From NCBI GenBank assembly GCA_963575745.1, contig CAUYUJ010005736.1, positions 1 through 64,000 on the forward strand: a DNA stretch of 64,000 nt. Reading direction: 5' to 3'. The stretch comes from Prorocentrum cordatum. Taxonomy: Eukaryota; Sar; Dinophyceae; Prorocentrales; Prorocentraceae. Positions 15,711 through 46,441 of the stretch are shown here, in pieces. Positions within the stretch are counted from its first letter, which is position 1. The number at the start of each line of letters is the position of its first letter. Both the position numbers and the translations under genes were made by a program. The notes under the pieces were generated by a model. It was not told the DNA's origin. It saw nothing but the letters and a program-made list of their open reading frames with translations, and made no database searches.

Positions 15711-16812
15711 AATGCAAATGCGTGCCGCTGCATGCCAACGCTTCCCAGCGCATGCCAACGCATGCCAACGCATGCCAACGCATGCCAAGGCACGCCAATG
15801 CATGCCAACGCATGCCAATGCATGCCGACGCACGCCAACGCATGAGAACGCGTGCCAACGAATGCCAATGAATGGCAACGCGCGCCAACGCATGCCAACG
15901 CGTGCCACTGCATGCCAACGCATACCATAGCATGCCAAAGCGTGCCAACGCATGCGAACGCGTGCCAACGCATGCGAACGCAGGCCAGCGCATGCCGAAT
16001 GACGCCAACGAGTGCCAACGCATGCCAACGCAAAACAATGCATGCCAACGCAGGCCACCCTATGCCAATGCACGCCAATGCATGCCAACGCATGCCCACA
16101 CATGTCAACGCATGCCAACACATGTGAAGGCATGCCGCCGCATGCCAACGCAGACCAGTGGATGTCACGCAGGCCAATGCATGCCAACGCAAGCCAACGC
16201 GCGCAAATGCATGCCAACGCATATCATAGCACGCCAGCGCATGCCAATGCGTGCCGATGCATTCTAATGTCTGCCAACGCGTGCCAACGCATGCCAAATC
16301 ATGTTAATGCATGCCAGCGCGCGCCAATGCATGCCAACGCTCGCTAATGCATGCCAACGCATGCCAAAGCATGCCAACTCATGCCGATGCATGCCAACGC
16401 ATGGCAAGGAATGCCCATGCATGCAAGTGCACGCTGATGCATGCCAACGCGTGCCAACACATGCCACTGCATGCCACTGCACACCAAAGCATCCCACTGC
16501 ATGCCAATGAACGCCAACGCATACCAACGCATGCCAACGCATGCCAATGCATGCCAATGCGTGCCAATGCATGTCGATGTATGCCAGCGCATGCGAACGC
16601 ATGCGAATGCATGCCAAACCATGCCACTGCGTGCCAACGCATGCCGACGCATGCCAACGCATTGCAACGAAGGCCGGTGCATGGCTACACATGCCAACGC
16701 GCGCCAATGCATGCCACTGCATGCCAACGCATGCAAACGCATGCCAACGCATGCCAATGCAAGCCAACGCGTGCCAATGCATGCCAATGCATGGTAAACG
16801 CATGCCAAGGTG
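15711..16812 (+). repeat. GCATGCCAAC decamer array 1
   Basis: About 1.1 kb of tandem 10-bp units, mostly GCATGCCAAC and GCATGCCAAT, with scattered variants. Each unit carries the palindrome GCATGC once per roughly 10 bp, about one helical turn. All six frames are open for long stretches, so the His/Ala/Cys/Met-rich translations are artefacts. Confidence 0.95.
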
Positions 16813-17036
16813 AGGGTAGCGCGCGCAAAGAAAAGAGTTGACTACCCGAGTTCGGGATAGCACGGGTCAGGGATATAGCTGTGGCCCCCAAGAACCAGTG
16901 CCCTGACCGGGGAGACCGATACCTAAACCCAAATCACCGTCGCCTTCGCTCTGGCGACTGGAAATTCGCGCGACTCTAAAACTTTTAGGGTCACGCAAAC
17001 TTACGGAGCTTAGCCCGAAGCCATAGCTAAGTTCCC
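16813..17036 (+). repeat. tail of composite unit 1 and spacer
   Basis: Begins with GGTGAGGGTAGCGCGCGC then AAAGAGTTGACTACCCG, which recurs after array 2 at about 19320. The remainder is unique. Confidence 0.7.
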
Positions 17037-17525
17037 AAGATCTTGCTACCTAATAAGGCGTGCTACGAGAACTCCAGCCGCATTTGTTGAGCCGGGCCAG
17101 CCGAAACAACGGACCGCAGGCTAGATGGGTGTGCGAGGCATAGCCGTGGCCCACAGTCCTGGCGAAGTCCCAGTGCGGACGGCGCTGGTCTTTCTTACCT
17201 AGTGCTGCTTGGTGCCAGAACTCCAGCCTTCTTTGTTGAGCCAGGCCAGCCAAAACAACGGACCGCAGGCTAGATGGGTATGCGTAGCATAGGCGTAGCC
17301 CGCAGTTCTCGCAGAGTCCCAGCGCGGACGGCGCTAGCCTTACCTGCCTAGTGCGACTTGCTACCAAAACTCCAGCCTTGTTTGTTGAGTCGGACCAGCC
17401 GAAACAACGGACCGCAGGCTAGATGAGCACGCGAAGCATAGACGTAGCCCACAGTCCTCGCAAAGTTCCGATGCGATCGGCGCCAACCTATACAGCCGCA
17501 GTGCAACTGATGTAAAGACGACTGT
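17037..17525 (+). repeat. ~145-bp satellite, head of composite unit 2
   Basis: Three clear units of about 145 bp with AACTCCAGCC .. TTTGTTGAG .. GAAACAACGGACCGCAGGCT .. GTAGCCCACAGTCCT. Followed by the same boundary segment as unit 1, ATGACTGGGCAACGCATGCC. Confidence 0.85.
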
Positions 17526-17529
17526 CGTG

Positions 17530-19318
17530 ATATGACTGGGCAACGCATGCCAATGAATGCCAACACGTGCCATAGCAAACCAACGCATGACAACACATGC
17601 CAACACATGTCCATGCATGCCAACACGTGCCACTGCATACCAGAGCATGCCAATGCATGCCACTGCATCCCAACGCATGCCAACGCAAGCCAATGCATGC
17701 CACCGCATGCCCTTGCATGCACACGAATGCCAACACATGCCCACGCATGACAACGCGTGCCGACGCAAGCCAATGCATGCCAACGCACGCCAACGCATGC
17801 CACTGCATGCCAGAGCATGCCGGAGCATGCCAACGCATGCGAACGCATGCCAACGCAAGCCAACGCATGCAAACGCATGCCAATGCATGCCAGCGACGGC
17901 CAAGGCATATCAATGCACTCCAACGCATGCCAATTCAGGCTGACGCATGCCAATGCATGCCAGTGACACTGGATGCCAGCGCATGCCAATGCATGCCAAC
18001 ACGTGCCAATGCATGCCAACGCACACCAACGCATGTCTATGGATGTCAACGCATGCCAATGCATGCTAATGCACGCCAGCGCACGCCAACACCTGCCAAC
18101 GCATGCCACTGGATGCGAACGCGTGCCAATGCATACCTGCGCATGCCAACGCATGCCAGGGCATGCCAATGCACGCCATCGCATGTCAACGCATGCCAGC
18201 GGATGCCAACGCATGTAACAGCATGCCAACGCATGCCATTGCATGACAACGCATACCAAAGCATGCCTACGCATGGTAACGCGTGCCAACGCGTGCCATA
18301 CCAAACCAACGCATGACAACGCATGCCAACACGGGCCCATCCAACGCATGCAACGCAGGCCAACGCATGCCACCGCATGCCAATACATGCCATAGCACGC
18401 AAACGCATGCCAATGCATGCCAAAGCATGCCAATGCATTTGAATTCATGTCGGTGCATGCCAACGCGTGCCATAGCAAGCCAACGCACGCCAATGCATGC
18501 CAACGCACGCCAGGGCATGCCAACGCATGCGAACGCATGCCAGGGCATGCCACTGCATACCATTGCATGCCAATGGCTGCCTACGGATGCCAACGTATGC
18601 CAAAGCATGCCAACGCATGCCACTGCATGTCCGCGCACGCCAACGCAGGCCAGGGGATGCCAATGCATACCAATGCATGCCAACGAACGCCAAAGCATGC
18701 CAACGCATGCCAATGCATGCCAACGCATGCCACTGCATGAGAACGCATGCCAAGGCATACCAGCGCATGCAAACGCATGACAACGCATGCCAATGCATGC
18801 CAGGGCCTGCCAATGAACGCCATCGTATGCCGATGCATGCCAAAGCATGCCAACGCATGCCAACGCATGACAACGCATACCAAGGCATGCCTACGCATGC
18901 TAACGCATGCCAATTCATGCCCATGCATGCCAACGCGTGCCATAGCAAACCAACGCATGACAACGCATGCCAACACATGCCCATGCATGCCCTTGCATGC
19001 CGATGCCTGCCAACACGTGCCACTGCATACCAATGCATGCCAATGCATGCCAATGCATCCCAACGCATGCCAACGCAGGCCAATGCATGCCAATGCATGC
19101 CCTTGCATGCCAATGCTTGCCAATGTGTGCCAACGCGTGCCATAGCAAGCCAACGCATGCCCTTGCATGAAAAATCCAATGCATGCCAACGCATGCCATA
19201 GTACGCCAACGCACGCGAATGCATGCCATTGCATGCCAATGCATGCCAATGCATGCCAACGCATGCCAATGCATGCCAACGCCTGCCAGTGAATGCCAAC
19301 GCGTGCAAACGCATGCCA
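17530..19318 (+). repeat. GCATGCCAAC decamer array 2
   Basis: About 1.8 kb of the same 10-bp repeat as 15711-16812, same orientation, with higher-order similarity among 40-100 bp blocks (for example recurring ..GCCATAGCAAACCAACGCATGAC.. blocks). Terminates with the same GGTGAGGGTAGCGCG tail. Confidence 0.95.
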
Positions 19319-20774
19319 AGGTGAGGGTAGCGCGTGCGGAGAAAAGAGTTGACTACCCGGGTTAGGGGTAGCACACAGGTGAGAGCTGCCCTGTTAGGAG
19401 TAGCATTTGGAGCGGAAGGATGAGGGGTCAAAACACGAAGGGCTAATGCCCAAAGGATGAATACCTGGTATTGGCAGAACTACCCTCTTCGATAATGCAA
19501 GACTGGGGAAGCCCACACCCATACAGTCGTATCAGGGCGCTGCCCCGTGGAGGTAATACACCTCGTGCGAATGCCAAATACTAATCTTATTCATGAGGCA
19601 GGTATGGAGGAGCCGGGAAACAATGTCCAGCATCCTGATATGTCGAGTGAGCAACTGCTCGCTCGATATGGCGATTGTCAAGCGGGGTTGGGGGGACCCC
19701 TATTTGAAACCAGATTGCTTGTGTCGCCCCGGTGGCGTATCTCCAGAGGGCTCGGGTGAGGTGCTCTTCGGAGATCGATGGTCTCCTTATAGGCGCCCCG
19801 TGCGTCCTCACCCGACTACCCAACAGGAGCCCTGCGCACCATTGGCACGGGGAGGAGGAGGAGGAGGAAGCGGAGGAGGAGGGAGGAGGTGGAGAGGTCA
19901 CCCAGGGTGGCGTCCCGAGTCGGGAGCCTTGCGATATGGGGATCAAGGCAGAGCGTGGTTGACCCAAGACCCTTTCGCTATTGTCGGCCTCCAGGGGCCC
20001 TCGCCGGGCCCCGGAACCGTCAAAAACGACTCAGGATGCAAAACTGGTCCCAGGGGAGGGGTCCAGAAATCTGGGGGTCGCCATTGCGAACAAAATCACG
20101 ACGTCGGGGGTCAGGGAGGTCGCCCAGGCAGGCGTCCCGTGTCGGGAGCCTTGCGACGGGGATCAGTGCAAACTGTGGTTGGCCCACACGGAGGTCCAAC
20201 TGAAAAGGGCTGCTGCCATAGATTTGGGGCAGTCGCACTGCAAATGTGCTCCTTGCGCAAGGGAAGTTGTGTTGCATAGTATTGCAACGAATGTATGGCA
20301 CGCGAAAATCCAGCAATACATCTGCGCACCGGATTGTACTGCACGCCCCAAGCCTGCTGCATACCCACGAAGATGTTGCGCCAAACCCATTGCACCGCCC
20401 TCGTTTCGCTGGACCCCCGATTTTACGGGGTCACCCAGACCGGCGGGGGTCGGCCAGAGATTCTGCAGAGCCAAGGGTGCGCTGACCCGGGCTCGTGTGG
20501 AGGATCTCCGACCTTCTCAGGGAGGGGGGGGGAGGGGGCTCGAGCCACCAGGGGAGGGAAGCGGAGCGGAGGATCGGAAGCAAGGGGCGACGACGATGAC
20601 GATGACGCTGACGACATCGTCATCGTCTCGTCATGACGTCTCGTCATCGTCGTGACGATGACGAATCGGCTCGCGCAGAAATGGCTTCCTGGAACCTCGT
20701 GGCGCCGGGAGGCGCCCAGGTATCGAGGAGCCAACTGCACGCAGCAGATGTCGCAGCCCCCCCCTCCCCCACTC
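19319..20774. other. tail of composite unit 2 and unique sequence
   Basis: 19319-19370 repeats the tail of unit 1. About 19897-19970 and 20127-20195 are diverged direct copies (GTC(A/G)CCCAGG..GGCGTCCCG..GTCGGGAGCCTTGCGA). No gene is recognised. Confidence 0.6.
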
Positions 20775-21364: not shown

Positions 21365-22170
21365 CCTTTCGTTTTCAGAACAACTTACAAAAGGCAAACG
21401 AAAATAATGGCCGTAAATGTAATCAATGGTAAATTATATTCTTCTTCTACCATCATCGCACAACTGAGAAAAAAAAACAAATCAAACCGAAACGGCAAAA
21501 CACACTTCGCGCCCTCGGTCAGCACAGCCAACGAAAAACAAACAAACAAAGACCGTGACCACAATGATAATTTACAATATACTTTTATTCTCAGACCAAA
21601 CAACTGATAAAGGTAAATCTGAATTCGCGCTCTCAGACCGCACAAATCCCAAAAACCAAATGCAAGCAAAAACCCTTCGCAAAATAATACACTATACTCG
21701 TTTCTCGTTCTCTCTCGGACCGCAGAACTGAGAAAAAACAAGAACAAACAAAAACTGCAAACACACCTGATAGATTATACTCTTCTTTTGCGCTCTGGGA
21801 CCGCACAACTCACAAAAGCGAATGCAAGCAAACACCGTAAACACTTTTGGGCGGTTTAGCAAATAGAAACGGAATAAAAACGAATACAAACAAAAACCGG
21901 GAACACAATAATATATAATAGTTTCGTTTGCGCTCCAAAACCGTAAACACGATAACATTACTATTGTCTTTCGCGCTCTCGGCTCTCGGACCGCACAACT
22001 GACAAAATGCAAACGAACAGAAACCGTAAACGCAATGATAAATTATAATCGTCGTTCGCGCTAGCCGACCGCACAACCGAAACAATAAATGTAAACAAAA
22101 ACCGTAAACACAATAACAAATGGAAAAAAAACGGAACTAATAACAACAACCGCAATCAAAACTGAAAGAA
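21365..22170 (+). repeat. AT-rich ~95-110 bp minisatellite
   Basis: About eight degenerate units built around CTCTCGGACCGCACAACTGA, GCAAACGAAAACCGTAAACAC and AATGATAAATTATA. Composition is much more AT-rich than the surroundings, and it marks the left border of the AT-rich island. Confidence 0.75.
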
Positions 22171-23220
22171 ACCGCCAAAATGCCCAATCTGAATAAATTT
22201 CTGATTTATTGAACTATTTTCCTTCGACAATCATACCGTCAAAACATCAAAATAAATGAAGCATGTGCGTTTCTGATGTTCCTCTTCGCGACTCTATCGC
22301 CAATTTCGGTGCTGTATTCTTACTCAAATCTGACGCACCAACTCTATTAAAATTTAGACGCCTTTAAACAAAATTCAATTAGAGAAAAAGGCAAGGAACA
22401 TCAAGGCATGCGATGAGGTGTGCATCTGTTGAGCAATAACCAATATTATTCTTAAGCTACATACGCCCTGACACAAACAAAACAACAAACGTATACGCTT
22501 AAATTCAATTTCTACTGAAAAAAACGAATGCTCGAACTGATGGATGTAATGTTTAACTCAAAAATATTACTGCAAAATAAACAGAAAAACACTGGATTCG
22601 AAAACAAAAGACAAAAACAATATCTTGAAGAAATATGTTGCATGCAAAAAAAAACACATCCCGTAAATACAACAAGGACGACATAATTCTAATATTTCTG
22701 GTGAGCATTTCACCGAACGTTAATTTTTTTAAAGAAAAAAAAAAAATGTGAGCACAAATGTATGGTGTCAATATTTCCCGTCGTTTCGGTGCTACGTATT
22801 GGAAATCTTCTCCTTGATTTCATGCTCAAATCTTTTCTTCGCAACGATTCCAAATCAAAATACAGGTAATTTGTGCTACGCTCCTTTAATACTTAAATTT
22901 CTGACTGCTCCGTCATTTGCTGTAATACGCTGGCATATCACACACACACATTTTTACTTGACAATATTTACTCTTCTTCTGCGGCATTTCGTCAACTCTG
23001 CCCTTGGTAAAATTTAGATGCCAAAATAATGAATAACACGATGCCTTCTGCAACATTTGTGTTCAAATTAATTGGCTTTTCGCACTTATTTCTCACTCTG
23101 TGAAATATTCTCTATGGCCAAATCACGAAGAGAGGGTCACAACATTTCTTTAAATCTTATGAATGCCTTTGCCTTGGCTTGGGGCCTCTTCCTATTTTCC
23201 AATCTCGAATTTGAGAGCTC
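22171..23220. other. AT-rich unique sequence
   Basis: About 1 kb of AT-rich sequence with no recognisable open frame. It lies directly downstream of the minus-strand MULE transposase remnant and may be the 3' flank or terminal region of that element, but I see no terminal inverted repeat. Confidence 0.45.
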
Positions 23221-23223
23221 TAT

Positions 23224-23645
23224 CTAAAGGAAATCAATACAATGCTTCGTAAACAACTTCGATAAATATCGAATGTTCAGAATGACTGCTCTTTGCACAT
23301 GATGTCGGTTAACATCTCTGTATGTTCCCTCCTTTGTGACGTAAACGTGCGCGTAAAAAATTCGTAGAAACACATGTCGAAACATATCATACATACCTTC
23401 TTTCAAATCTGTGCTTGGATGAGAACGTCTGATCCTTTCTGCGTGCACCAATTTCAACATTGCTTCCATGTCACGGGAATTTCCATGAGCACGATTGAAT
23501 TTGTATTTCAGCATCGCGTAAATTCCACATACTTGTGCCATGAGGTCCGCTCTATTCAATTTCCCATCCGACGTCGAACAAACTCTTTAATAATCGGTGT
23601 TGCCGTTCGATGGTGTTTGCCGGAAATCTCGTAAAACCGTCCGGA
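23224..23645 (-). pseudogene. MULE-like transposase, C-terminal piece
   Basis: Minus-strand remnant of a Mutator-like element transposase. Reading from the 10-bp duplication, the sequence encodes FPANTIERQHRLLKSLFDV, which matches the conserved region after the MULE catalytic core where TNN..E..N..LK is usual. A TAG stop and a frameshift then separate it from a 111-residue frame (23224-23559) rich in Arg/His/Lys. The fold-back element 23668-26420 separates it from the core piece. When that element and one copy of its duplication are ignored, the frame is continuous across the junction apart from one TAA. Codon use is AT-rich, unlike the surroundings. Assigned by motif only. Confidence 0.6.
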
Positions 23646-23657
23646 ACTGCACCAAGA

Positions 23658-23667
23658 CCTTATGCCC
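23658..23667. repeat. 10-bp target site duplication, left
   Basis: CCTTATGCCC, an exact direct repeat of 26421-26430. Together they flank the inverted-repeat element 23668-26420. Length fits Mutator-superfamily insertion (usually 8-11 bp). Confidence 0.8.
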
Positions 23668-23960
23668 GGCACCAACGGGACTCGCAATTGAACAACGGGA
23701 CTCACAACTGGAACAACGGGACTCGCAACTCAACAACGGGACTCGCAACTGGCAACAACGGGACTCGCAACTGGCAACAACGGGACCCGCAACTGGCAAC
23801 AACGGGACTCGCATCTGGCAACAACGGGACTCGCAACTGGCAACAACGGGACTCGCAACTGGCAACAACGAGACTCGCAATTGGCACGGGATTCGTAACT
23901 GGCAGCAGCGGGATTCGCAATTGGCAGGCTCGCAATTGGCAGCAAGGAGACCTGCAATTG
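23668..23960 (+). repeat. left tandem-repeat arm of fold-back element
   Basis: About a dozen 20-22 bp units of GGGACTCGCAACTGGCAACAAC type, with shorter variant units (missing GGC) at the outer end. It is the inverse of 26160-26420. Confidence 0.85.
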
Positions 23961-24340
23961 GCAGCAACAAGGCGCGCAAACGAAGGAATTGCAGAGACGT
24001 GCGGCTTTTGCAGGAAACCCCGTTTAAGCGGGAAAGTCGGTAAAAGAAAGAGAGTTTGGGTTAGGCGGGGGAACCGGCCTACCAATTCAGCGGGAGATCC
24101 GGCTTATGCAGGAGAACCGGTTTAAGCGGGATAGCCGGCTTAAGCAGGAGAGCCGGGAGAGCTGGCTTCAAAAAGAAAACTAGGTTTAATGGTAGAGGTT
24201 GTTTTAACAAGAAATTGGGTTCAAACGGGACGGAAAGCTTAAAGACGAAACCGTTTTCAAGTCTAGAGCTTGTTTTTGTGGAAAAACCGGTTTCGTGAGT
24301 TGGCATTAGCGGGACATACAGAATGGTGCGATTGTCGGGA

Positions 24341-25311
24341 ATCCCACCAGCCCTCTGGGCGTAGGTGGTCTAGAGCAGATCATCTTCCACCCCTCCCTCT
24401 TCCCCCTTCGGGAGGGGTTTACCCCTCCCCCTACCCCCTCCCCTCGACCTGGACGGGGGGGGCCGCGGGTAGTTAGAGCGTCCAAGATGGCCCAAGACGG
24501 CTCCAAGAGCGCCTCAGAGAACCCAAGATGAGCTCCAAGATGGCTCAAGATAGCGCAAGATCGCTCACGATGGCTCCTAAGATGGTTCCAAGAAGCCCAA
24601 AGACGGCCCCAAGATAACTCCAAGTGGCCAAACAGCTCCCCAAGGAGGCCCCGAAGAGGCCAAAATCGTCCCAAAACCTAAAGAAAATCAATGATTTTTG
24701 CTTTCTCGCCTTTTCGCTTCCGATGGCCATTCGAGGCCTGGAGATGGCTCCAAGATGGCCCAAGAGGGCCCCAAGAGAGCCCCAAACGAGCCCCAAGACG
24801 GCCCCAAGAGCGCCCAAGAGCACTCCAAGAGCGTTCCAAGAGGGGTCCAAGAGGCGATTTTAGGGCTTCCGAGGGGGGACGCTAATTAAACCCCCCCTCT
24901 TGTTTGATCGACTCCCTCCAAGATGGCCCCAAAAGCGCCCCGAAGGCTCCCCAGAGCGCCTCAAGAGGGTCCCAAGAGGCGCCCAAGATGCCCCAAGGCG
25001 CCCAAAAAGCCCTCCAAGAGGCCCTCAAAAGACCCCCAAGAAGCTCCTTCCCCTCCTCCTCCTCCTCCTCCGATTCTTCCTCCTTCTCCGTCCTCCTCCT
25101 CCTCCTCCTCCTCCTCCTCTTCCCCCTCCTCCTCCTCCTCCTCCTCCGACGACGACGACGACGACGACGACGACTCTTCCATCCTCCCCCTCTCGGGGTC
25201 TGTGACAGCTTCCCCCGCCCTTTGTTATTCTGCATGCTCCCCGACTTCCCTGATCACCTCAACTCCCCTGAGCATCGTTTCTGGATGGGCTGGTGGGGAT
25301 ACGCGAAGCGT
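24341..25311 (+). mobile_element. structured element S, copy 1 (Helentron-like)
   Basis: 971 bp. Starts ATCCCACCAGCCC and has near its 3' end the inverted GGGCTGGTGGGGAT, followed by the short hairpin ACGCGAAGCGT. The order is: 5' stem region (CCACC..GGTGG; GGGGAGGGG..CCCCTCCCC-type palindrome), CCAAGAGGC-type short repeats, an internal 24850-25040 block (GGGGGACGCTAATTAAACCCCCC.. then GATGGCCCCAAAAGCGCCCC), a (TCC)n tract, (GAC)n, and a conserved 3' segment. It has about one internal unit where copies 2 and 3 have three. No coding content. Asymmetric inverted ends plus a 3' hairpin resemble Helitron2/Helentron non-autonomous elements; that assignment is inference. Confidence 0.6.
25045..25175. 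repeat. (TCC)n/(GAC)n tract inside element S copy 1
   Basis: Pyrimidine triplets followed by nine or so GAC/CGA triplets at about 25147-25172. The same position in copies 2 and 3 holds (TCC)n ending in a shorter CGACGACGACGG. Confidence 0.9.
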
Positions 25312-25353
25312 CAACAATTCATTTATGGATTAGCGGTGAAATCCGGTTTTGTC

Positions 25354-25722
25354 TTATTTGTATTGCATTGATTTTGTATTTGCCCGGATTGTAATAATAT
25401 GTATTTCTTTCGATTGCGTAATCGTAAATAGCCCCCGTTGACCGGATTGAAAACATTGCCGTAACCATACGGAGAAGCCTATAATATTCCCGATATTCTT
25501 CTGCATTGTTTCAAGGACCGAACCCGCGATCATAATGATTATTCCGTTTGTTATATGCGGGCCTTTTGCAGCCAATAGAACGGCACTACATTTCGACGAC
25601 GACCTGCCGATGAAAACGAAATTCTTCGACAATTTCATGGCGACGACCTGCTCGACGATAACGAAATTTCCTTGGCCGACCTCTTGCATGTGATCCTTCC
25701 TCCTCTTCACCCTCTTCCTCAT
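25354..25722 (-). CDS. hypothetical small ORF in AT-rich segment
   Basis: A 122-residue open frame within the fold-back element, in sequence that is AT-rich like the MULE remnants and not simple repeat. The N-terminal half (GNFVIVEQVVAMKLSKNF then KCSAVLL) loosely recalls a FLYWCH-type zinc finger as found in MULE transposases, but the Trp and His ligands are not convincing. It could be a captured or older transposon fragment, or chance. No product assigned. Confidence 0.2.
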   Translation of the reverse strand: MRKRVKRRKDHMQEVGQGNFVIVEQVVAMKLSKNFVFIGRSSSKCSAVLLAAKGPHITNGIIIMIAGSVLETMQKNIGNIIGFSVWLRQCFQSGQRGLFTITQSKEIHIITIRANTKSMQYK

Positions 25723-26159
25723 TCAAACCTCACAGAGCAATTATGTCCACCCCAGACGGCCCCAGGAATGGGAAAGAACTGGAATAAGAAGAGAAATAGA
25801 AGGGAATCGGAAAAAGATATCGGAATGGGAGCAAACCAGAATGGAAGGGAACCTGAATAAGTAGGAGAGAGCCGGAACACGAGGAATGGAGGAAGGGGAG
25901 ATGGAGGAAGGTCCCCTACATTTCCTTGTTCTCCTTTGTTTTCTCGTCCTCCTTCTGCCTCCTCATTACGAACCTCTCTCTGCTTCCTCGTTACGAACCT
26001 CCCTCTGCCTCCTCCTCATCCTCAGCCTCCTCCTCGAAGTCCCGCCTCTCGCGGATGCTGTTCGCCCGGTTCGCCGGGCTTCGTCTCGCCAAGCTTCGTT
26101 TCGCCGGGGTCGCTTTCGCCAGGTTTCGTCTTGCTGGGCTTCGTTCTCGGGGATGCGCA

Positions 26160-26420
26160 TGTAGTTGCGAGTATCGTTTTCCAAATGCGAGCGCCATTGT
26201 TGCCAGTTGCCGGTCCCATTGTTGCCAGTTGCGAGTCCCGTTGTTGCCAGTTGCGAGTCCCGTTGTTGCCAGTTGCGAGTCCCGTTGTTGCCAGTTGCGA
26301 GTCCCGTTGTTGCCAGTTGCGAGTCCCATTGTTGCCAGTTGCGAGTCCCGTTATTGAGTTGCGAGTCCCGTTGTTCCAGTTGCGAATCCCGTTGTTCAGT
26401 TGCGAGTCCCGTTGCCCTTC
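26160..26420 (-). repeat. right tandem-repeat arm of fold-back element
   Basis: Inverted copy of the left arm; plus-strand reading is CGAGTCCCGTTGTTGCCAGTTG repeats with the same short variant units at the outer end. Confidence 0.85.
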
Positions 26421-26430
26421 CCTTATGCCC
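26421..26430. repeat. 10-bp target site duplication, right
   Basis: CCTTATGCCC, identical to 23658-23667. Confidence 0.8.
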
Positions 26431-26966
26431 ATTTTGCACGAATAATATCTTCTTTGCAAATGAGGATGTAATTCTTCATATGTGGCAAATTCCGGATCAA
26501 CGAATTCGATTTCTTAATTGTTCCGGAAATACTTCGTGTTAGTATCTCATCCCAAAACGTTGTGAACTCTAAATCGTTCGGCATCCATGCTGATGACAGA
26601 TAAATGCGTCAAAATACGGTAGTAACTCCTGACGTGATAACCGTAAATTTCCACTCTCTTCATCTTTCTTCTTACTTCTGCTTTCAGATTTGTGCGTACA
26701 TGCTGCAAACATCGATGTAAATATAAGATTGCTCCATATTTCTTCTCGACAGTATGAAAACATGCGCAATCGAAACATGTATCTCGTATTTCCATGCCGA
26801 CATTCTTAGCGATATCGAAAAACAAATCCGCAAGCATAATGTGAGCGTCTTCGTCTTCCCTATCTGCCAACATGAACACGCATGGGAAACAACGCATATG
26901 TGGCTCTCTAGTTGTTTGATTTTGCCACAGACCAGCCGGACCTGCAGCGCCCAAAACCAAACCATG
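26431..26966 (-). pseudogene. MULE-like transposase, catalytic-core piece
   Basis: Minus strand. The open part (137 codons, stop at 26547-26549) reads GLVLGAAGPAG .. MRCFPCVFMLADREDEDAHI, the strand before the second catalytic Asp in MULE transposases. It continues with FDCACFHTVEKKYGAI and HRCLQHVRTNLK, whose C-x2-H is the conserved C2H motif of this family. The Asp in FDCACF is the candidate second catalytic residue. After the stop a +1 shift restores homologous-looking sequence (FWDEILTRS..) up to the 10-bp duplication. The N-terminal side is cut by structured element copy 2, and the stretch with the first catalytic Asp is not found. AT-rich composition contrasts with neighbours. Catalytically dead as it stands. 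Confidence 0.65.
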
Positions 26967-26969
26967 GTA

Positions 26970-28457
26970 ATCCCACCAGCCCTTTAGGGCGTAGGTGGTT
27001 TAGGGAGTTTCCTCTGCCAACCCCCTTCTTCCCCTTCGGGGAGGGGTTTACCCCTCCCCTTACCCCTCCCCACTGACCTGGACGGGGCGTTCCGCGGGTC
27101 GTTGGGACGGCCAAGATGGCCCAAGACATCTCCAAGAGCGAAAAGGCGAGAAACACACAAAACATTGATTTTACCTAGGTTTTGGAAGGATTTTGGCCTC
27201 TCGGGGGGGCCCAAGAGGCGCTTCGAGGCACTCTAGAAGGGCAACCCTAATTGGAGCTCCCCCCTTCTTTGATAGATCTCCTCCAAGATGGCCCCAAGAG
27301 CGCCCCGAAGGCTCCCAAGAGCGCCCCAAGAGCGCCCCAAGAGGGCCCCGAGAGACCCCAAGAGGCCCCCAAGAAGCCTCTAAGAGGCTGCCAAGAGACC
27401 CCCAAGAGGCCCCAAGAGAGTTCAAGATGGCCCAAGACGGCTCCAAGAGCGAAAAGGCGAGAAAGCAACAAACAATGATTTTACCTTAGGTTTTGGAAGG
27501 ATTTTGGCCTCTTGGGGGGCCCAAGAGGCGACTCGAGGCACTCTAGAGGGGCAACGCTAATTGGGGACCCCCTCTTCTTTGATCGATCTCCTCCAAGATG
27601 GCCCCAAGAGCGCCCCGAAGGCTCCCAAGAGCGCCCCAAGAGCGCCCCAAGAGCGCCCCAAGAGGCCCCAAGAGGCGCCCAAGAGGCCTCCAAAAGGCTC
27701 CCAAGAGACCTCCAAGAGGCCCAAGAGGCTCCCAAGACGGCCCAAGACGGCTCCAAGAGCGAAAAGGCGAGAAAACACAAAACATTGATTTTACCTAGGT
27801 TTTGGAAAGATTTTGGCCTCAAGAAGGGCCCAAGAAGCGATTCGAGGCACTCTAGAGGGGCAGCGCTAATTGAGGACCCCCCCTTCTTTGATAGATCTCC
27901 TCCAAGATGGCCCCAAGAGCGCGTCGAAAGCTCCCAAGAGCGCCCCAAGAGCGCCCCAAGAGAGCTCCAAGAGGCCCCAAGAGGCCCCCAAGAGGCCTCC
28001 AAGAGGCCCCCAAGAGACCCCCAAGAGGCCACAAGAGGCTCCCCGAGATACGCAAGAGGCCCCCGGGACCGCCAAGAGGCTCCAAAGACGGCCCAAGAGG
28101 CCCCCAAGCTCGCCATTGTCCTCCTCCTCCTCCTCTTTTTCTTCCTCCTCCCTCCTCCCCCTCCCCCTCCTCCTCCTCCTCCTCCTCCTCCTCCTCCTTT
28201 TCCTCCTCCTTCTCGTCCTCGCAGTCCTCCATCTCCTCCTCCTTATCTTCCTCCTCCTCCTCCTCCTGCTCCTCCTCCTGCTCCTCCTCTTCCTCCTCCT
28301 ACTCCGACGACGACGGCTCCTCCTACATCCTCCCCCTCTTGGGGTATATGGCGGCTCACCCCGCCCTTTGTTCTTCTGCATGCTCCCCCGCTTCCCTCAT
28401 AACCTCCACTCCCCTGGGACTCATTTCTGGACGGGCTGGTGGGGATACGCGAAGCGT
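26970..28457 (+). mobile_element. structured element S, copy 2 (Helentron-like)
   Basis: 1488 bp. 5' end ATCCCACCAGCCC then TTTAGGGC (CCACC..GGTGG stem); inverted subterminal GGGCTGGTGGGGAT at 28433-28446; terminal hairpin ACGCGAAGCGT at 28447-28457. Contains about three tandem units of ~310 bp, each with ATTTTACCTAGGTTTTGG, GGCACTCTAGA.GGGCAACGC and TCTCCTCCAAGATGGCCCC, then (TCC)n. Inserted in the MULE transposase gene: coding sequence resumes on both sides. No direct target duplication was seen. Its nearest relative is copy 3, which matches nearly end to end. No ORF with domains. Confidence 0.65.
28115..28315. repeat. (TCC)n tract inside element S copy 2
   Basis: Pyrimidine triplet tract ending in CGACGACGACGG. 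Source of poly-Glu/Gly/Ser open frames that are not genes. Confidence 0.9.
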
Positions 28458-29349
28458 CTAGAATTTGTCTTAGGGAACTCGATAAATGCTTCCAATCCTT
28501 ATCGACACTGCGAGCAGACGAGAACGGAATACGTAATTTTGTTGCACTTAGAATCTTCTTGTCATGGTAAACCTGCATCTCTTTTGGAGGATTTTCCAGA
28601 AACATATTGAAAGTACCAAGGCATTCTGCAACGTAATGATTAATAGGTACTTTATTCTTGGCTCGTTGGTTCGTGATTTGACGCTCTGTCGGCCAATGGT
28701 CTGGATCCAACCGGTCTGCTTTTTTCTCCGTGGTGATCTTGGCGTATTTTTTTGCATTCCTTAACTGCTCGTCACGTTGATTTACGTTGCCAGTACATTT
28801 TCCAGTTACTTCAATTATCATTGTCTTATTTTGCCTGGAAAAACACCACGTTTTCGTGCAATTATTACATTTCTTGCAAGCCGCCTGGAAATTCTTAATC
28901 CCATTGTAAGATGACGGTGTCAAAGAATGCACGTACATGTCGTTCTCGCGGATATAATTATTGATCATTTCACGTAACATATTTGGCAATGTAAAAGCAA
29001 TCGGCTCACCATGCAGCTCAAACGGGCGCCGCTTTTTACCTCTCTGCCCCCGCGGCCTTTCCTTAATTAGCTCTTCTTCGGGGGCATCTCGGATCTGTAA
29101 AGGAACGACATCGAGAGGTTGGCCTGTGCTGCTCGACCCAACTCCAGGAGCGCACGAATCTCCTGGAGCGGGGAGCCACCCATCTTCAAGATGCGATTGA
29201 TTGAATGAGGGCACGGCCTGCAGTTGGATGCGAGCGCCCTGTGCAGGTGGCCGACGCCATAAAACCACTCCATCCGCCACCATAAAGAAAAGAAACATAA
29301 ACATGATATGGACGTGTACCCTCTCCAACGGAGCGGACCGAAGGTACAA
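28458..29349 (-). pseudogene. MULE-like transposase, N-terminal piece
   Basis: Minus strand, open from Met at 29349 for about 296 codons before entering element S. Residues of about 130-240 carry a Cys-rich finger (FQAACKKCNNCTKTWCF, then GKCTG) of the zinc-finger type that precedes the core in MULE transposases. After it come a basic segment (AKKYAKITTEKKADR), EMQVYHDKKIL, and PFSSARSVDKDWKHLSSSL, which end at the insertion. The first 30 residues include a hydrophobic stretch (IMFMFLFFMV) that may not be native; the true start could be at 28982 (MLREMINNYI) or lie across an intron (a TTTACAG 3' splice-like site reads at about 29100). Distinctly AT-rich. Confidence 0.55.
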
Positions 29350-29538
29350 ATGAAACTGTGATAATCACAAAGAAATGCTGAAATAGTTTCAGCCTTAAAC
29401 ACTACGGATCAATTACATCACCGTTTCCGGAATATTAGCAATATATCGAGAGGGAAAAGGGATGGATGACAGATGTAGACATCCTTTTCCTTTGCCCGTG
29501 CCCTACCGACGCTCTGTCGTGGGATTCGTAACTTGGAT

Positions 29539-29856
29539 TCAAAAGTCCCCGCAGAGGTTTACAGATTTAGAGGGGACTAACTCTGTAAACTTAGCAACCT
29601 TTGATCCCTCGCTGCCGCAATTTTGCCCCAGAGCCGCTACGAATCCTCTGTAGGACACGGGCATGTAAGCTCTGGGAGGCCGATCGATCCCGGAAATACT
29701 TCCGGGAGACCAGCCGGCAGCCTGAGCTTCGAAAAACCTGTCTAGTAATTCGATGCTCCCAAAAACTGATCCTGAAGCCTGGAAACCAAATCCTCGAGGA
29801 AAGGAGCAATCTATCGCTGATTCTATCGTTGTTACGTCTATTCTCTTCGTCGACAA
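29539..29856 (-). CDS. hypothetical ORF upstream of MULE remnant
   Basis: A 105-residue frame of normal complexity beginning MSTKRIDVTTIESAIDCSF with balanced composition (FFEAQAAGWSPGSISGIDRP). It is on the same strand as, and about 190 bp upstream of, the MULE N-terminal piece, in the AT-rich island. I do not recognise a family. It could be a first exon or an accessory gene of the element, or an unrelated fragment. Confidence 0.25.
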   Translation of the reverse strand: MSTKRIDVTTIESAIDCSFPRGFGFQASGSVFGSIELLDRFFEAQAAGWSPGSISGIDRPPRAYMPVSYRGFVAALGQNCGSEGSKVAKFTELVPSKSVNLCGDF

Positions 29857-29907
29857 GGCGCGGAACTATAGAATTTGAAACTTATTTTCTAATAATTTTC
29901 TAGATAT

Positions 29908-30626: not shown

Positions 30627-31123
30627 AGATGAGGTTTCCATGGGGCCACGAAGCGTGGCACGCAGCATGCGGGCCCTGCCCGGGGCTGCGGGTGGAGTTC
30701 TCCGAAACGCTGGCATGGGCCCAGGCCGCCATGCGGAGCGGGGCCTTAATCGGTGGACCCCCCCATGGGGCCACGAAGCGTTGTTTGAAGGGCGTGCCGA
30801 ATCGGGCGCGGGTACGCCATGCAGGCGCTGCCGCTGGGGCGTTCGGTGGAGCTCCCTATGGGGCCACGAAACTTAAGAGGGGTGCGCCGAATCGGGTGCG
30901 GGTGCGCCATGCGGCCTTCGGTGGGGCTCCCTATGGGGGCACGAAATGTGGGCGGGGTGTGCCGAATCGGGTGGTGTTACGCCATGGGAACCCTGCCGCT
31001 GGGGCATCGGTGGGGCTCCTATGGCGCCACGCATCACGTGGCGGGTGTGCCGAGTCGGGTGCGGGTACGCCATGCGGACCTTGCCGCTGAAACCTTCGGT
31101 GGGGCTCATCCTGGGGCCACGAA
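30627..31123 (+). repeat. 90-bp satellite, left part
   Basis: About five to six units of roughly 90 bp: GTGCCGAATCGGG(T/C)GCGGGTACGCC, ATGCGGACCCTGCCGCTGGGG, CCTTCGGTGGAGCTCCCTAT, GGGGCCACGAAGCGT. Interrupted at 31124 by element S copy 3 and resumed at about 32606. The period being a multiple of three keeps frames open; I see no evidence that it is translated. Confidence 0.85.
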
Positions 31124-32605
31124 ATCCCACCAGCCCTTTAGGGCGTAGGTGGTCTAGGGAGTTTCCTCTGCCAACCCTCTTCTTCCCCTTCGGGGAGGGG
31201 TTTACCCCTCCCCTTACCCCTCCCCACTGACCTGGACGGGGCCGGTCGCGAGGTGTCAGAGCGTCCAAGGTGGCCCAAGACAGCTCCACGAGCGAACAGG
31301 CAAGAAAACACAAAACATTGATTTCACCTAGGTTTTGGAAGGATTTTGGCATCTTGGGGGGGCCCAAGAGGCGACTCGAGGCACTCTGGAGGGGCGGGGC
31401 TAATAAGCACCCCCCCCTTCTTTGATAGATCTCCTCCAAGATGGCCCAAAGAGCGCCCCGAAGGCTCCCAAGAGCGCCCCAAGAGCGCCCCAAGAGGGCC
31501 CCAAGAGACCCCAAGAGGCCCCCAAGAAGCCTCCAAGAGGCTGCCAAGAGACCCCCAAGAGGCCCCAAGAGAGTCCAAGATGGCCCAAGACGGCTCCAAG
31601 AGCGAAAAGGCGAGAAAGCAACAAACATTGATTTTATCTAGGTTTTGGAAGGATTTTGGCCTCTTGGGGGGCCCAAGAGGCGACTCGAGGCACTCTAGAG
31701 GGGCAACGCTAATTGGGGACCCCCTCTTCTCTGATCGATCTCCTGCAAGATGGCCCCAAGAGCGCCCCGAAGGCTCCCAAGAGCGCCCCAAGAGCGCCCC
31801 GAGAGCGCCCCAAGAGGCCCCAAGAGGCGCCCAAGAGGCCTCCAAAAGGCTCCCAAGAGACCCCCAAGAGGCCCAAGAGGCTCCCAAGACGGGTCCAAGA
31901 GCGAAAAGGCGAGAAAACACAAAAACATTGATTTTACCTAGGTTTTGGAAGGATTTTGGCCTCTTGGACGGGCCCAAGAGGCGACTCGAGGCACTCTAGA
32001 GGGGCAGCGCTAATTGGGGACCCCCCTTCTTTGATAGATCTCCTCCAAGATGGCCCCAAGAGCGCCTCGAAGGCTCCCAAGAGCGCCCCAAGAGCGCCCC
32101 AAGAGAACCCCAAGAGGCCCCAAGAGGCCCCCAAGAGGCCTCCAAGAGGCCCCCAAGAGACCCCCAAGAGGCCACAAGAGGCTCCCCGAGATACGCAAGA
32201 AGCCCCCGGGACCGCCAAGAGGCCCCAAGGACGGCCCAAGAGGCCCCCAAGCTCGCAATTGTCCTCCTCCTCCTCCTCTTTTCTTCCTCCTCCCTCGTCC
32301 CCCTCCCCCTCCTCCTCCTCCTCCTCCTCCTCCTCCTCCTCCTTCTCCTTTTCCTCCTTCTCGTCCTCCTCGTCCTCGCAGTCCTCCATCTCCTCCTCCT
32401 TCTATTCCTCCTCCTCCTCCTCCTCCTGCTCCTCCTCTTCCTCCTCCTACTCCGACGACGACGGCTCCTCCTACATCCTCCCCCTCTTGGGGTATATGGC
32501 GGCTCACCCCGCCCTTTGTTCTTCTGCATGCTCCCCCGCTTCCCTCATAACCTCCACTTCCCTGGGACTCATTTCTGGACGGGCTGGTGGGGATACGCGA
32601 AGCGT
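31124..32605 (+). mobile_element. structured element S, copy 3 (Helentron-like)
   Basis: 1482 bp, nearly identical in structure to copy 2: ATCCCACCAGCCCTTTAGGGC start, three ~310-bp units beginning at about 31320, 31630 and 31930, (TCC)n at 32258-32455, inverted GGGCTGGTGGGGAT at 32581-32594, hairpin ACGCGAAGCGT at 32595-32605. Inserted in the 90-bp satellite after GGGGCCACGAA. The next bases, CTAGAATTTG, are the same as those after copy 2, where they belong to the MULE coding sequence, suggesting that copy 3 descends from copy 2 with read-through of its flank. Confidence 0.65.
32258..32465. repeat. (TCC)n tract inside element S copy 3
   Basis: Same tract as 28115-28315, ending in CGACGACGACGG. 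Confidence 0.9.
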
Positions 32606-33257
32606 CTAGAATTTGAAAGGGGTGCGCCGAATCGGGTGCGGGTACGCCAAGCGGTCCCTAGAGCTGGGGCCTTCGGTGGGGCTCCCTATGGGGCCTGTGA
32701 GGGGTGTGCCGAAACGGGTGCGGGTACGCCGTGCGGACCCTGCCGCTGGGGCCTTCGGTGGAGCTCCCGATGGGGCCACGGAGCGTTTGAGAGGTGTGCC
32801 GAATCTGGTGCGGGTACGCCATGCGGGCCCTGCCGCTGGGGCCTTCGGTGGAGCTCCCTATGGGGCCGCGCATCGTGTGAAGGCTGTGCCGAATCGGATG
32901 CGGGTACGCCATGCGGACCGTGCCGTTGGGGCTCTCGGTGGAGCTCTCCTTGGGGTCACGAAGCCTGTGGGTGGAATGCGAAATCGGGCGCGGGTACGCC
33001 ATGCGGATCCTGCCATTGGGGCCTTCGGTGAAACTCCCTATTTGGCCGCGCAACATGTTGGGTATGGTGCCGAATCGGGCGCGGGTACGCCATGCGAGCC
33101 CTGCCGCTGAAGCTTTCGGTGCCCCCCCTATGAAGCCACGGAACGTGTGCGGGGTGTGCCGCATTGGGCGCGGGTGCGCCAGGCGGACCTTGCCGCTGTG
33201 GCCTTCGGTGGGGCTCCTATGGGGATACGAAGCGTGTGCGGGGTGTGCCGAATCGCT
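32606..33257 (+). repeat. 90-bp satellite, right part
   Basis: About seven units continuing the repeat of 30627-31123, with GCCGAATCGG words spaced 82-91 bp from about 32625 to 33247. Confidence 0.88.
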
Positions 33258-40215: not shown

Positions 40216-40832
40216 CCTGCATGTTCATCCCCCGTCATACTCATAATTCTCATGAGCACTCGTCATCAACACCATCATCATCATCACCATCATCATCAGC
40301 AGCAGCACCATCATCATCATCATCCTCATCATCATCATCAGCAGCATCAGCATCAGCATCAGCATCATCATCAACATCAGCATCAGCAGCAGCAGCAGCA
40401 TCACCCTCACAAACATATGTGGCTCGAGATCCCTTCTCTGAACCCATTCCGCATCCCACATGTCCGACACATCACCCAGTACTCAACAGCCTCCGCGTCT
40501 CACACACACAATGTGCTCAACAGACTCCCGCTGCAAAACACCCCCCCTGGGAATTAGATCAAACTCCCGATCCCGCCCGCCTTCGCGCCCGCCCGCCCCC
40601 GCTCTCCCTGCGCTCAACTCTTTCTGTGTCCAGCACAACACCCAGTACTGAACAGCCTCCGTGTCCTACACAACACCCAGTACTCAATAGCCTCCGTGCC
40701 CAACACAACACCTTGTATTCAACAAACTCCCGCTGCAAGACGCCCTCCTTAGGAGTTCTATTAAAATCCCGGCCCCGCCCGCCGCCCGCCGCCCGCCCGC
40801 GCGCCCGCCCGCCGCCCGCTCCCGCCCCCACC
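40187..40832 (+). repeat. segmental duplicate block 2 and ~215-bp satellite units
   Basis: Repeats 37840-38250 and then two units of the ~215-bp satellite, ending at a GCCCGCTCCCGCCCCC junction with decamer array 3. Confidence 0.8.
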
Positions 40833-41385
40833 CAATGCATGCCAGTGCATGCCAGTGCATGCCAACGCATGCAAGCGCATTCCAAAGCATGCAAATGCAT
40901 GCCAAAGCATGCCAATCCATGCCAATGCATGCCAACGCATGCCAACGCATGCCAATGCGTGCCAATGCATGCCAAAGCATACCAAGGGGTGCCAACGCAT
41001 GCTAATTCATGCCAACGCATGCCAATGCCAATGTTTTTGCCAATGCAGGCCACTCCAGGCCAACGCATGCCAATGCGTGCCAATGCATGCCAAAGCATAC
41101 CGAGGCGTGTCAACGCATGCCAATTCATGCCAACGCATGCCAATGCCAATGTTTGCCAATGCAGGCCAATGCATGCCAACGCATGCCAGTGCATGCCAAT
41201 GCGTTGGCATGCATTGGCATGCTTTGGCGTCCGATGACATGCATTGGCTTGCGCTGGCACGCATTGGCATGTCAACGCAAGCCAATGCATGCCAATGCGT
41301 GCCAATGCTTTGCATGCATCGGCATGCTATGGCATCCCGTAACATACATTGGCTTGCGTTGGCATGCATTGGCATGCATTGGCCG
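40833..41385. repeat. decamer array 3 with orientation switches
   Basis: GCATGCCAAT/C units as in 15711-19318. About 40980-41160 contains a ~115-bp block repeated twice with ATGCCAATGCCAATGTTT. At about 41200 the array flips to the complementary orientation, flips back at about 41265, and flips again at about 41320, so adjacent blocks are inverted repeats able to form hairpins. Confidence 0.9.
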
Positions 41386-46306: not shown

Positions 46307-46309
<3 letters not shown>

Positions 46310-46385
<76 letters not shown>

Positions 46386-46399
46386 TTTTTTTAAAAAAA

Positions 46400-46437
<38 letters not shown>
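46310..46437. repeat. poly(T) run followed by (TA)n
   Basis: About 70 consecutive T, then mixed A/T, then about 16 TA units. Read on the minus strand it is (TA)n then poly(A). Could be the tail of a retroposed sequence or an expansion; length is probably unreliable. Confidence 0.9.

Positions 46438-46441
<4 letters not shown>

What the first reader, a model, noticed from the sequence alone, without database searches (positions are those of the whole stretch)
23658..26430. Fold-back element with tandem-repeat arms and a perfect 10-bp target duplication
CCTTATGCCC occurs exactly at 23658-23667 and 26421-26430, and immediately inside each copy starts an inverted array of a 20-22 bp repeat whose outermost variant units match in order. 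Terminal inverted repeats made of a variable minisatellite are unusual. The 10-bp duplication suggests Mutator-type integration. It looks like a family that could expand or contract its own ends.
Basis: partly seen in the sequence, partly recalled or inferred. Interest (0 to 1): 0.75.

Follow-up and report, generated by a model that had tools for sequence, protein, structure and literature searches.

The report
Foldback transposon with repeat-built ends
A mobile DNA element with no recognised gene of its own, whose two ends are mirror-image stacks of a 22-letter repeat, has spread to many places in a very large, probably dinoflagellate, genome; it is a new family of a known type, and its ends really do gain and lose repeat units.

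Summary
Window 23658-26430 is a foldback DNA transposon, apparently nonautonomous, inserted in a dispersed AT-rich repeat. Its arms match at 94% over 214 bp. The joined flanks match 25 other host-repeat copies almost end to end, and four aligned copies hold one target instead of two. The interior matches about 38 other places (40 of 287 candidates scored). Of 22 loci with both ends read, 15 have exact 9-10 bp target duplications, 3 have one mismatch and 4 have none; among 580 mismatched pairings of ends only 2 match. Each arm is a 7-bp motif, a nearly fixed cap of units 20, 21 and 20 bp long, and a variable block of 22-mers. Five copies with cores 98.7-99.9% alike have 4, 5 or 6 inner 22-mers in the right arm, so whole-unit change is recent. 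A 973-bp high-copy element sits inside this copy and none of 18 others. No transposase was found; the Mutator assignment rests on duplication length and likeness to Tm1 and Tetris. It is a new family of a known kind. The organism is probably Prorocentrum cordatum (inferred).

The parts
23658..23667 (+). left target duplication CCTTATGCCC (9 bp, 23658-23666, if the element begins with the C at 23667)
   Evidence: exact pair, unique in the window; single target in four aligned paralogous host repeats
23667..23673 (+). left terminal motif CGGCACC, outside the repeat array
   Evidence: C before GGCACC in 15 of 15 left ends
23674..23734 (+). left cap: three variant units of 20, 21 and 20 bp
   Evidence: 20-21-20 in 15 of 15 left ends and 8 of 9 further ones, L061 lacking one unit
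23735..23979 (+). left inner array: six 22-bp units, then degenerate units
   Evidence: inner 22-mers vary 4-7 among 15 left arms
23980..24339 (+). left interior of the foldback element (no recognised coding sequence)
   Evidence: shared with other copies at about 85-98%
24343..25315 (+). nested high-copy element, not part of the foldback; flanked by AAT on both sides
   Evidence: absent from 18 of 18 other copies whose junction my pattern found (20 loci examined); 40 other places at 97-99% (40 of 4837 candidates scored)
25316..26162 (+). right interior of the foldback element (no recognised coding sequence)
   Evidence: 94 matches at about 39 places, the window included (40 of 287 candidates scored)
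26163..26352 (-). right inner array: seven 22-bp units plus degenerate inner units
   Evidence: inner 22-mers vary 0-11 among 19 right arms
26353..26413 (-). right cap: units 20, 21 and 20 bp, read from the end inward
   Evidence: 20-21-20 in 17 of 19 right ends, exceptions L029 and L044, and in 7 of 7 further ones (C92 not counted twice)
26414..26420 (-). right terminal motif GAAGGGC (GAAGAGC in one subfamily)
26421..26430 (+). right target duplication CCTTATGCCC

Best explanation
This is one copy of a dispersed foldback DNA transposon family, apparently nonautonomous. Shown: defined ends, target duplications of 9-10 bp, paralogous empty sites, near-identical copies at different sites, and arms built from a nearly fixed outer cap and a variable number of 22-bp units. 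Inferred: a transposase encoded elsewhere, most likely of the Mutator (MULE) superfamily, recognises the terminal motif and cap, cuts the element out and inserts it with a 9-10 bp stagger. Also inferred: the inner 22-mers change number by unequal exchange or slippage between identical units, and exchange between arms of different copies makes composite elements.
For: Copies: the interior gives 94 matches at about 39 places, window included (40 of 287 candidates scored); the left end gives 103 matches (40 of 128 candidates scored). Duplications: 13 exact and 3 with one mismatch among 20 loci with both ends, 2 of 580 cross pairs; two more exact, L058 and C92. Empty sites: 25 of 37 non-window rows cover almost the whole joined query; four aligned copies have one target. 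Cap: 23 of 24 left ends, 24 of 26 right ends. Unit change: L036, L037, L038, L040 and L042 have cores 98.7-99.9% identical and 5, 5, 5, 6 and 4 inner 22-mers in the right arm. Composites: L030 and L056.
Against: No copy with a transposase was found, but only 40 of 128 end candidates were scored. The MULE family search of the genome did not complete. Four of 22 loci show no duplication (L029, L033, L036, L057). Within one element the outer 83 bases of left and right arms are no more alike than between elements (0.958 over 12 pairs against 0.961 over 243; right arms L029 and L044 left out), so there is no sign of homogenisation between the two arms of a copy. The cap is not absolutely fixed: L061 lacks one left unit, and L029 and L044 depart on the right.
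Confidence: 0.9

Rival explanations
1. A foldback element mobilised by a P-superfamily transposase, as the Drosophila element Galileo is, rather than by a Mutator-type one.
For: Foldback ends arise in several superfamilies; Galileo has internally repetitive inverted ends and a P-element transposase (start of the abstract of PMC3573991 in the listing; PMC3169594 discussion).
Against: Duplications here are 9-10 bp in 18 of 22 loci; P-type elements make 7-8 bp (recalled). The structure matches the Mutator-assigned families Tm1 and Tetris.
Confidence: 0.07
2. Two independent local minisatellite expansions that happen to lie in opposite orientation, with a chance 10-bp match.
For: The window is extremely rich in tandem repeats (181 rows, some overlapping).
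Against: Same arms, cap order, interior and ends recur at many loci with different flanks; paralogous empty sites exist.
Confidence: 0.01
3. The element is mobilised by the transposase-like gene of the very AT-rich repeat it interrupts. This is a special case of the best explanation, not exclusive of it.
For: The host repeat has open frames, and a C-terminal stretch looks like a MULE transposase to the eye (IERQHRLLK region; motif recalled).
Against: No Pfam transposase model at E<=1 for any host piece given, no protein homologues; the ends of the host repeat were not determined and no cap was seen on it.
Confidence: 0.05

Closest known systems
Tm1, Mutator/Foldback family of root-knot nematodes (PMC3169594; abstract, sections 5 and 9 and part 1 of 2 of section 11 read)
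   Same: Inverted ends made of a short tandem repeat whose number differs between the two ends and between copies; asymmetric 7-bp motifs outside the inverted repeat (A1 CGGTTAA, A2 CCTACCC there; CGGCACC, GAAGGGC here); 9-bp duplications; noncoding copies; a paralogous empty site; a nested insertion.
   Different: Repeat 22 bp against about 14 bp, unrelated in sequence by eye; here the three outermost variant units are nearly fixed in order and length; a transposase-bearing copy is known for Tm1 and not here.
Tetris, foldback of Drosophila virilis (PMC4079207; abstract, introduction and section 17 read)
   Same: Nonautonomous foldback, 8-10 bp duplications, internal tandem repeats in the ends, rearranged forms, assigned to Mutator without a transposase copy.
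   Different: Repeat about 220 bp, which spawned satellite arrays; satellite-size arrays of the 22-mer were not looked for here.
Galileo of Drosophila (PMC3573991, start of abstract in listings only)
   Same: Long inverted ends with internal repeats and structural dynamism.
   Different: P-superfamily transposase; duplication length differs (recalled).

Membership tests
Foldback-type DNA transposon | long inverted termini built of tandem repeats | tested here: met
Foldback-type DNA transposon | repeat number varies between ends and between copies | tested here: met
   inner 22-mers 4-7 in 15 left arms, 0-11 in 19 right arms
Foldback-type DNA transposon | dispersed copies with target duplications and empty sites | tested here: met
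   18 of 22 loci, 3 of them with one mismatch; paralogous empty sites
Mutator (MULE) superfamily | target duplication of about 9-11 bp | tested here: met
   9-10 bp
Mutator (MULE) superfamily | MULE transposase in the autonomous partner | tested here: inconclusive
   no coding copy recognised among loci read (three element frames tested against Pfam, no transposase); genome search with PF10551 unanswered
Tm1 | sequence of Tm1 motifs A, B, C | tested here: not met
   motifs in PMC3169594 compared by eye: only the first three bases CGG of A1 agree

The most novel reading that the evidence does not exclude
The ends act as an adjustable binding ladder. Units of 20-22 bp are about two helical turns, so transposase molecules bound to successive units would sit on one face of the DNA. 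The nearly fixed 20-21-20 cap would set the cutting geometry, while the freely changing inner 22-mers tune how strongly each end competes for transposase supplied in trans.
Probability: 0.25. Interest if true: 0.6.

Novelty: new member of a known kind. Interest (0 to 1): 0.38.

Why it matters
It adds a foldback family from what is probably a dinoflagellate, a group for which two searches of the held library found no paper on foldback or Mutator-foldback elements. The copies are numerous and some are young, so one genome shows which part of a repeat-built transposon end is held fixed (terminal motif and cap) and which part changes (inner units). That separates recognition from padding and makes the question testable. 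Beyond that it is an ordinary, well-precedented type of element.

Tried and rejected
Exact-match scans outside the genome gave nothing: 0 hits for a 24-mer in viral contigs; a scan of prokaryote contigs for an 18-mer gave 6 single hits, about what I reckon chance gives in 257 Gb. No Rfam match in the window at gathering scores. Pfam scans of single window ORFs and of 144 window ORFs gave only weak hits, among them RVT_2 and rve at E about 0.009 in one unidentified member each. Three protein searches with pieces of the host repeat found nothing at E 0.001, 1 and 0.01. Three frames of foldback copies (270, 311 and 237 aa) gave no convincing Pfam match (best E 0.13). The long C92 copy (L054 plus L041, ends about 10.7 kb apart, 10-bp duplication TCTCAAATAT) looked like an autonomous copy, but what I recognised inside is reverse-transcriptase-like (judged by eye). 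The inner parts of the two arms are not inverted copies of each other (local score 11; 200 shuffles: median 12, maximum 19). The 10-bp arrays at 15730-19319 and 40832-41383 were read and not taken further.

Selection: of about 39 interior places I fetched 20 stretches first, then 3 more; the rest were not read at full length. Seven loci were chosen from the cap search because they were new, and one stretch completed C92. The counts leave out the ends its patterns missed; L058 and C92 were added, and the other loci lacking an end stay out. The pattern requires the C before GGCACC, so only speaks on that C.

Full report
What is there. The window is contig C5736:1-64000 of a 4.13-Gb assembly in 21,875 contigs. 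CCTTATGCCC is present exactly twice, at 23658 and 26421. Inside it lie (C)GGCACC on the left and GAAGGGC on the right, and then inverted arrays of a unit AACGGGACTCGCAACTGGCAAC. From each end inward the unit lengths are 20, 21, 20 and then 22. The arms match at 94.4% over 214 bp.

A nested insertion. The first genome search with the whole 2773 bp was dominated by one interior block, which matches 40 other places at 97-99% (40 of 4837 candidates scored). Aligning the junction in the other foldback copies shows GGGAATTC where this copy has GGGAAT, then 973 bp, then AATTC. So 24343-25315 is a separate high-copy element that landed in this copy; 18 of 18 other copies whose junction my pattern found lack it (not found in L035 and L044). 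The foldback itself is about 1.78 kb here.

The family. With the right interior (25320-26163) as query, 40 of 287 candidates were scored and gave 94 matches at about 39 places, the window included. I fetched 20 stretches with wide flanks and mapped arms and interior. With the outer 104 bases of the left arm as query, 40 of 128 candidates were scored and gave 103 matches, both left ends (query 1-104) and right ends (query 7-104). More loci were then read.

Ends and duplications. Over 31 loci, 24 left ends and 25 right ends were recognised, 20 loci having both. Thirteen of 20 have an exact 9-10 bp duplication, three more have one mismatch (L044, L051, L052), and four have none (L029, L033, L036, L057). 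Two loci with ends the pattern missed also match exactly, L058 (AGGTAGGGG) and C92 (TCTCAAATAT), making 15 exact of 22. Among 580 pairings of a left end with the right end of another locus, two match exactly: L029 left with L027 right, and L059 left with L035 right. None of those four loci shows its own pair, and L027 has a gap of 100 N next to the element. These are best read as one insertion split by a misjoin or by exchange between copies.

Empty sites. The window's flanks joined at one copy of the target (297 bases) gave 39 rows. Two are the window itself, and 25 of the other 37 run through nearly the whole query (from position 21 or earlier to 273 or later) at 67-86% identity. In four aligned copies the target stands once, for example CCGGATGCCC. 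The host is therefore a dispersed AT-rich repeat and the foldback is inserted in it. In the window, joined, the host frame most like the paralogs has a stop at the target, where L048 and L049 are open. I describe this only. The host looks like a MULE transposase gene to the eye, but no Pfam transposase model matched the pieces given, and three protein searches found nothing.

What is fixed and what changes. In the first 21 loci the cap lengths 20-21-20 hold in 15 of 15 left ends and 17 of 19 right ends (not in L029 and L044). Loci read later add 8 of 9 left ends (L061 lacks one unit) and 7 of 7 right ends. The 22-mers behind the cap vary: 4-7 on the left and 0-11 on the right. Five copies with cores 98.7-99.9% identical (L036, L037, L038, L040, L042) keep five inner 22-mers on the left but have 5, 5, 5, 6 and 4 on the right, the difference being in identical units. 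So unit number changes faster than sequence. In the outer 83 bases, left and right arms of one element are no more alike than arms of different elements (0.958 over 12 pairs against 0.961 over 243; right arms of L029 and L044 left out). That speaks against conversion between the two arms as a main force. L030 and L056 are composites of two copies joined through arms.

How it most likely works. Shown: it is a transposon family with defined ends, 9-10 bp duplications, paralogous empty sites and young copies. Inferred: it is nonautonomous, since the open frames seen look low-complexity or belong to the arrays (by eye), and three of the longer ones (311, 270 and 237 aa) have no convincing Pfam match. 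Inferred: it is moved in trans, probably by a Mutator-type transposase that reads the terminal motif and cap, and inner units change by unequal exchange or slippage.

Comparison. Tm1 of root-knot nematodes is the closest in design: asymmetric 7-bp motifs outside the inverted repeat, a variable short repeat, 9-bp duplications and a paralogous empty site (PMC3169594). Tetris of Drosophila virilis was placed in Mutator on the same kind of evidence, 8-10 bp duplications without a transposase copy (PMC4079207). That paper notes most foldbacks seem to be Mutator, with exceptions. The Tm1 paper names Galileo, with a P-type transposase, as one. By sequence this is not a Tm1 member.

Organism. Inferred, not shown. 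The assembly (4.128 Gb, 21,875 contigs; window mean G+C about 59%) resembles Prorocentrum cordatum CCMP1329 (4.15 Gb, 22,724 scaffolds, 59.7% G+C; passages of PMC10666404). Two copies of the 12-mer TTTTGGCTCAAG, the end of the dinoflagellate spliced leader as I recall it, lie 44 bases apart in L047; the genome-wide pattern search did not complete. In the held library no paper joins 'dinoflagellate', 'foldback' and 'transposable element'; three papers hold 'Mutator', 'dinoflagellate', 'terminal inverted repeats' and 'transposase', none about dinoflagellate Mutator elements judged by title and start of abstract. A review of dinoflagellate genomics has no 'Mutator', 'MULE' or 'MITE' in its main text (PMC11453091, passages).

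Unsettled. The base before GGCACC is C in 15 of 15 left ends. If that C belongs to the element, duplications are 9 bp in some copies and 10 bp in others, and the 9-bp ones are often followed by C on the right: six of the nine exact ones. I cannot explain this.

Noticed in passing
24343-25315: High-copy 973-bp element beginning CCCACCAGCCC and ending GCGAAGCGTCAAC, inserted at AATT; in several fetched copies the target is palindromic around AATT (for example GGGAATTCCC in L008, GGCAATTGCC in L012). Both ends could form short hairpins (by eye).
   Followed up: partly
26966-28476 and 31123-32613: Two larger relatives of that element (about 66% alike) with three internal units of about 300-310 bp; the first interrupts the same AT-rich host repeat.
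   Followed up: partly
about 21370-29900 apart from the insertions: AT-rich dispersed host repeat (ends not determined) with a minus-strand open frame that looks like a MULE transposase to the eye; in paralogs L048/L049 a frame nearby holds GDGNCQFRAF, reminiscent of OTU proteases (Pfam C65 E 0.14).
   Followed up: partly
L033:3560-3747: Ten bases upstream of one foldback stands the right end of another element: same terminal motif and cap, but a different inner repeat (about CAGTCTCTGACCCGGTTGTTC). Possible sister family; genome search unanswered.
   Followed up: partly
L027 right end with L029 left end; L059 left end with L035 right end: Pairs of loci that share one duplication between them, as if one insertion had been split by exchange or misassembly.
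   Followed up: partly
15730-16808, 17541-19319, 40832-41383: Long arrays of a 10-bp unit GCATGCCAAC; the third switches orientation near 41200, forming a large palindrome. The first two arrays have similar sequence on both outer sides (by eye).
   Followed up: partly
L054 and L041 (contig C92): A foldback copy whose ends are about 10.7 kb apart, still with a 10-bp duplication, holding reverse-transcriptase-like frames (judged by eye).
   Followed up: partly
46308-46380: Uninterrupted run of 73 T, with a 35-base AT run at 46404-46438 close by.
   Followed up: no
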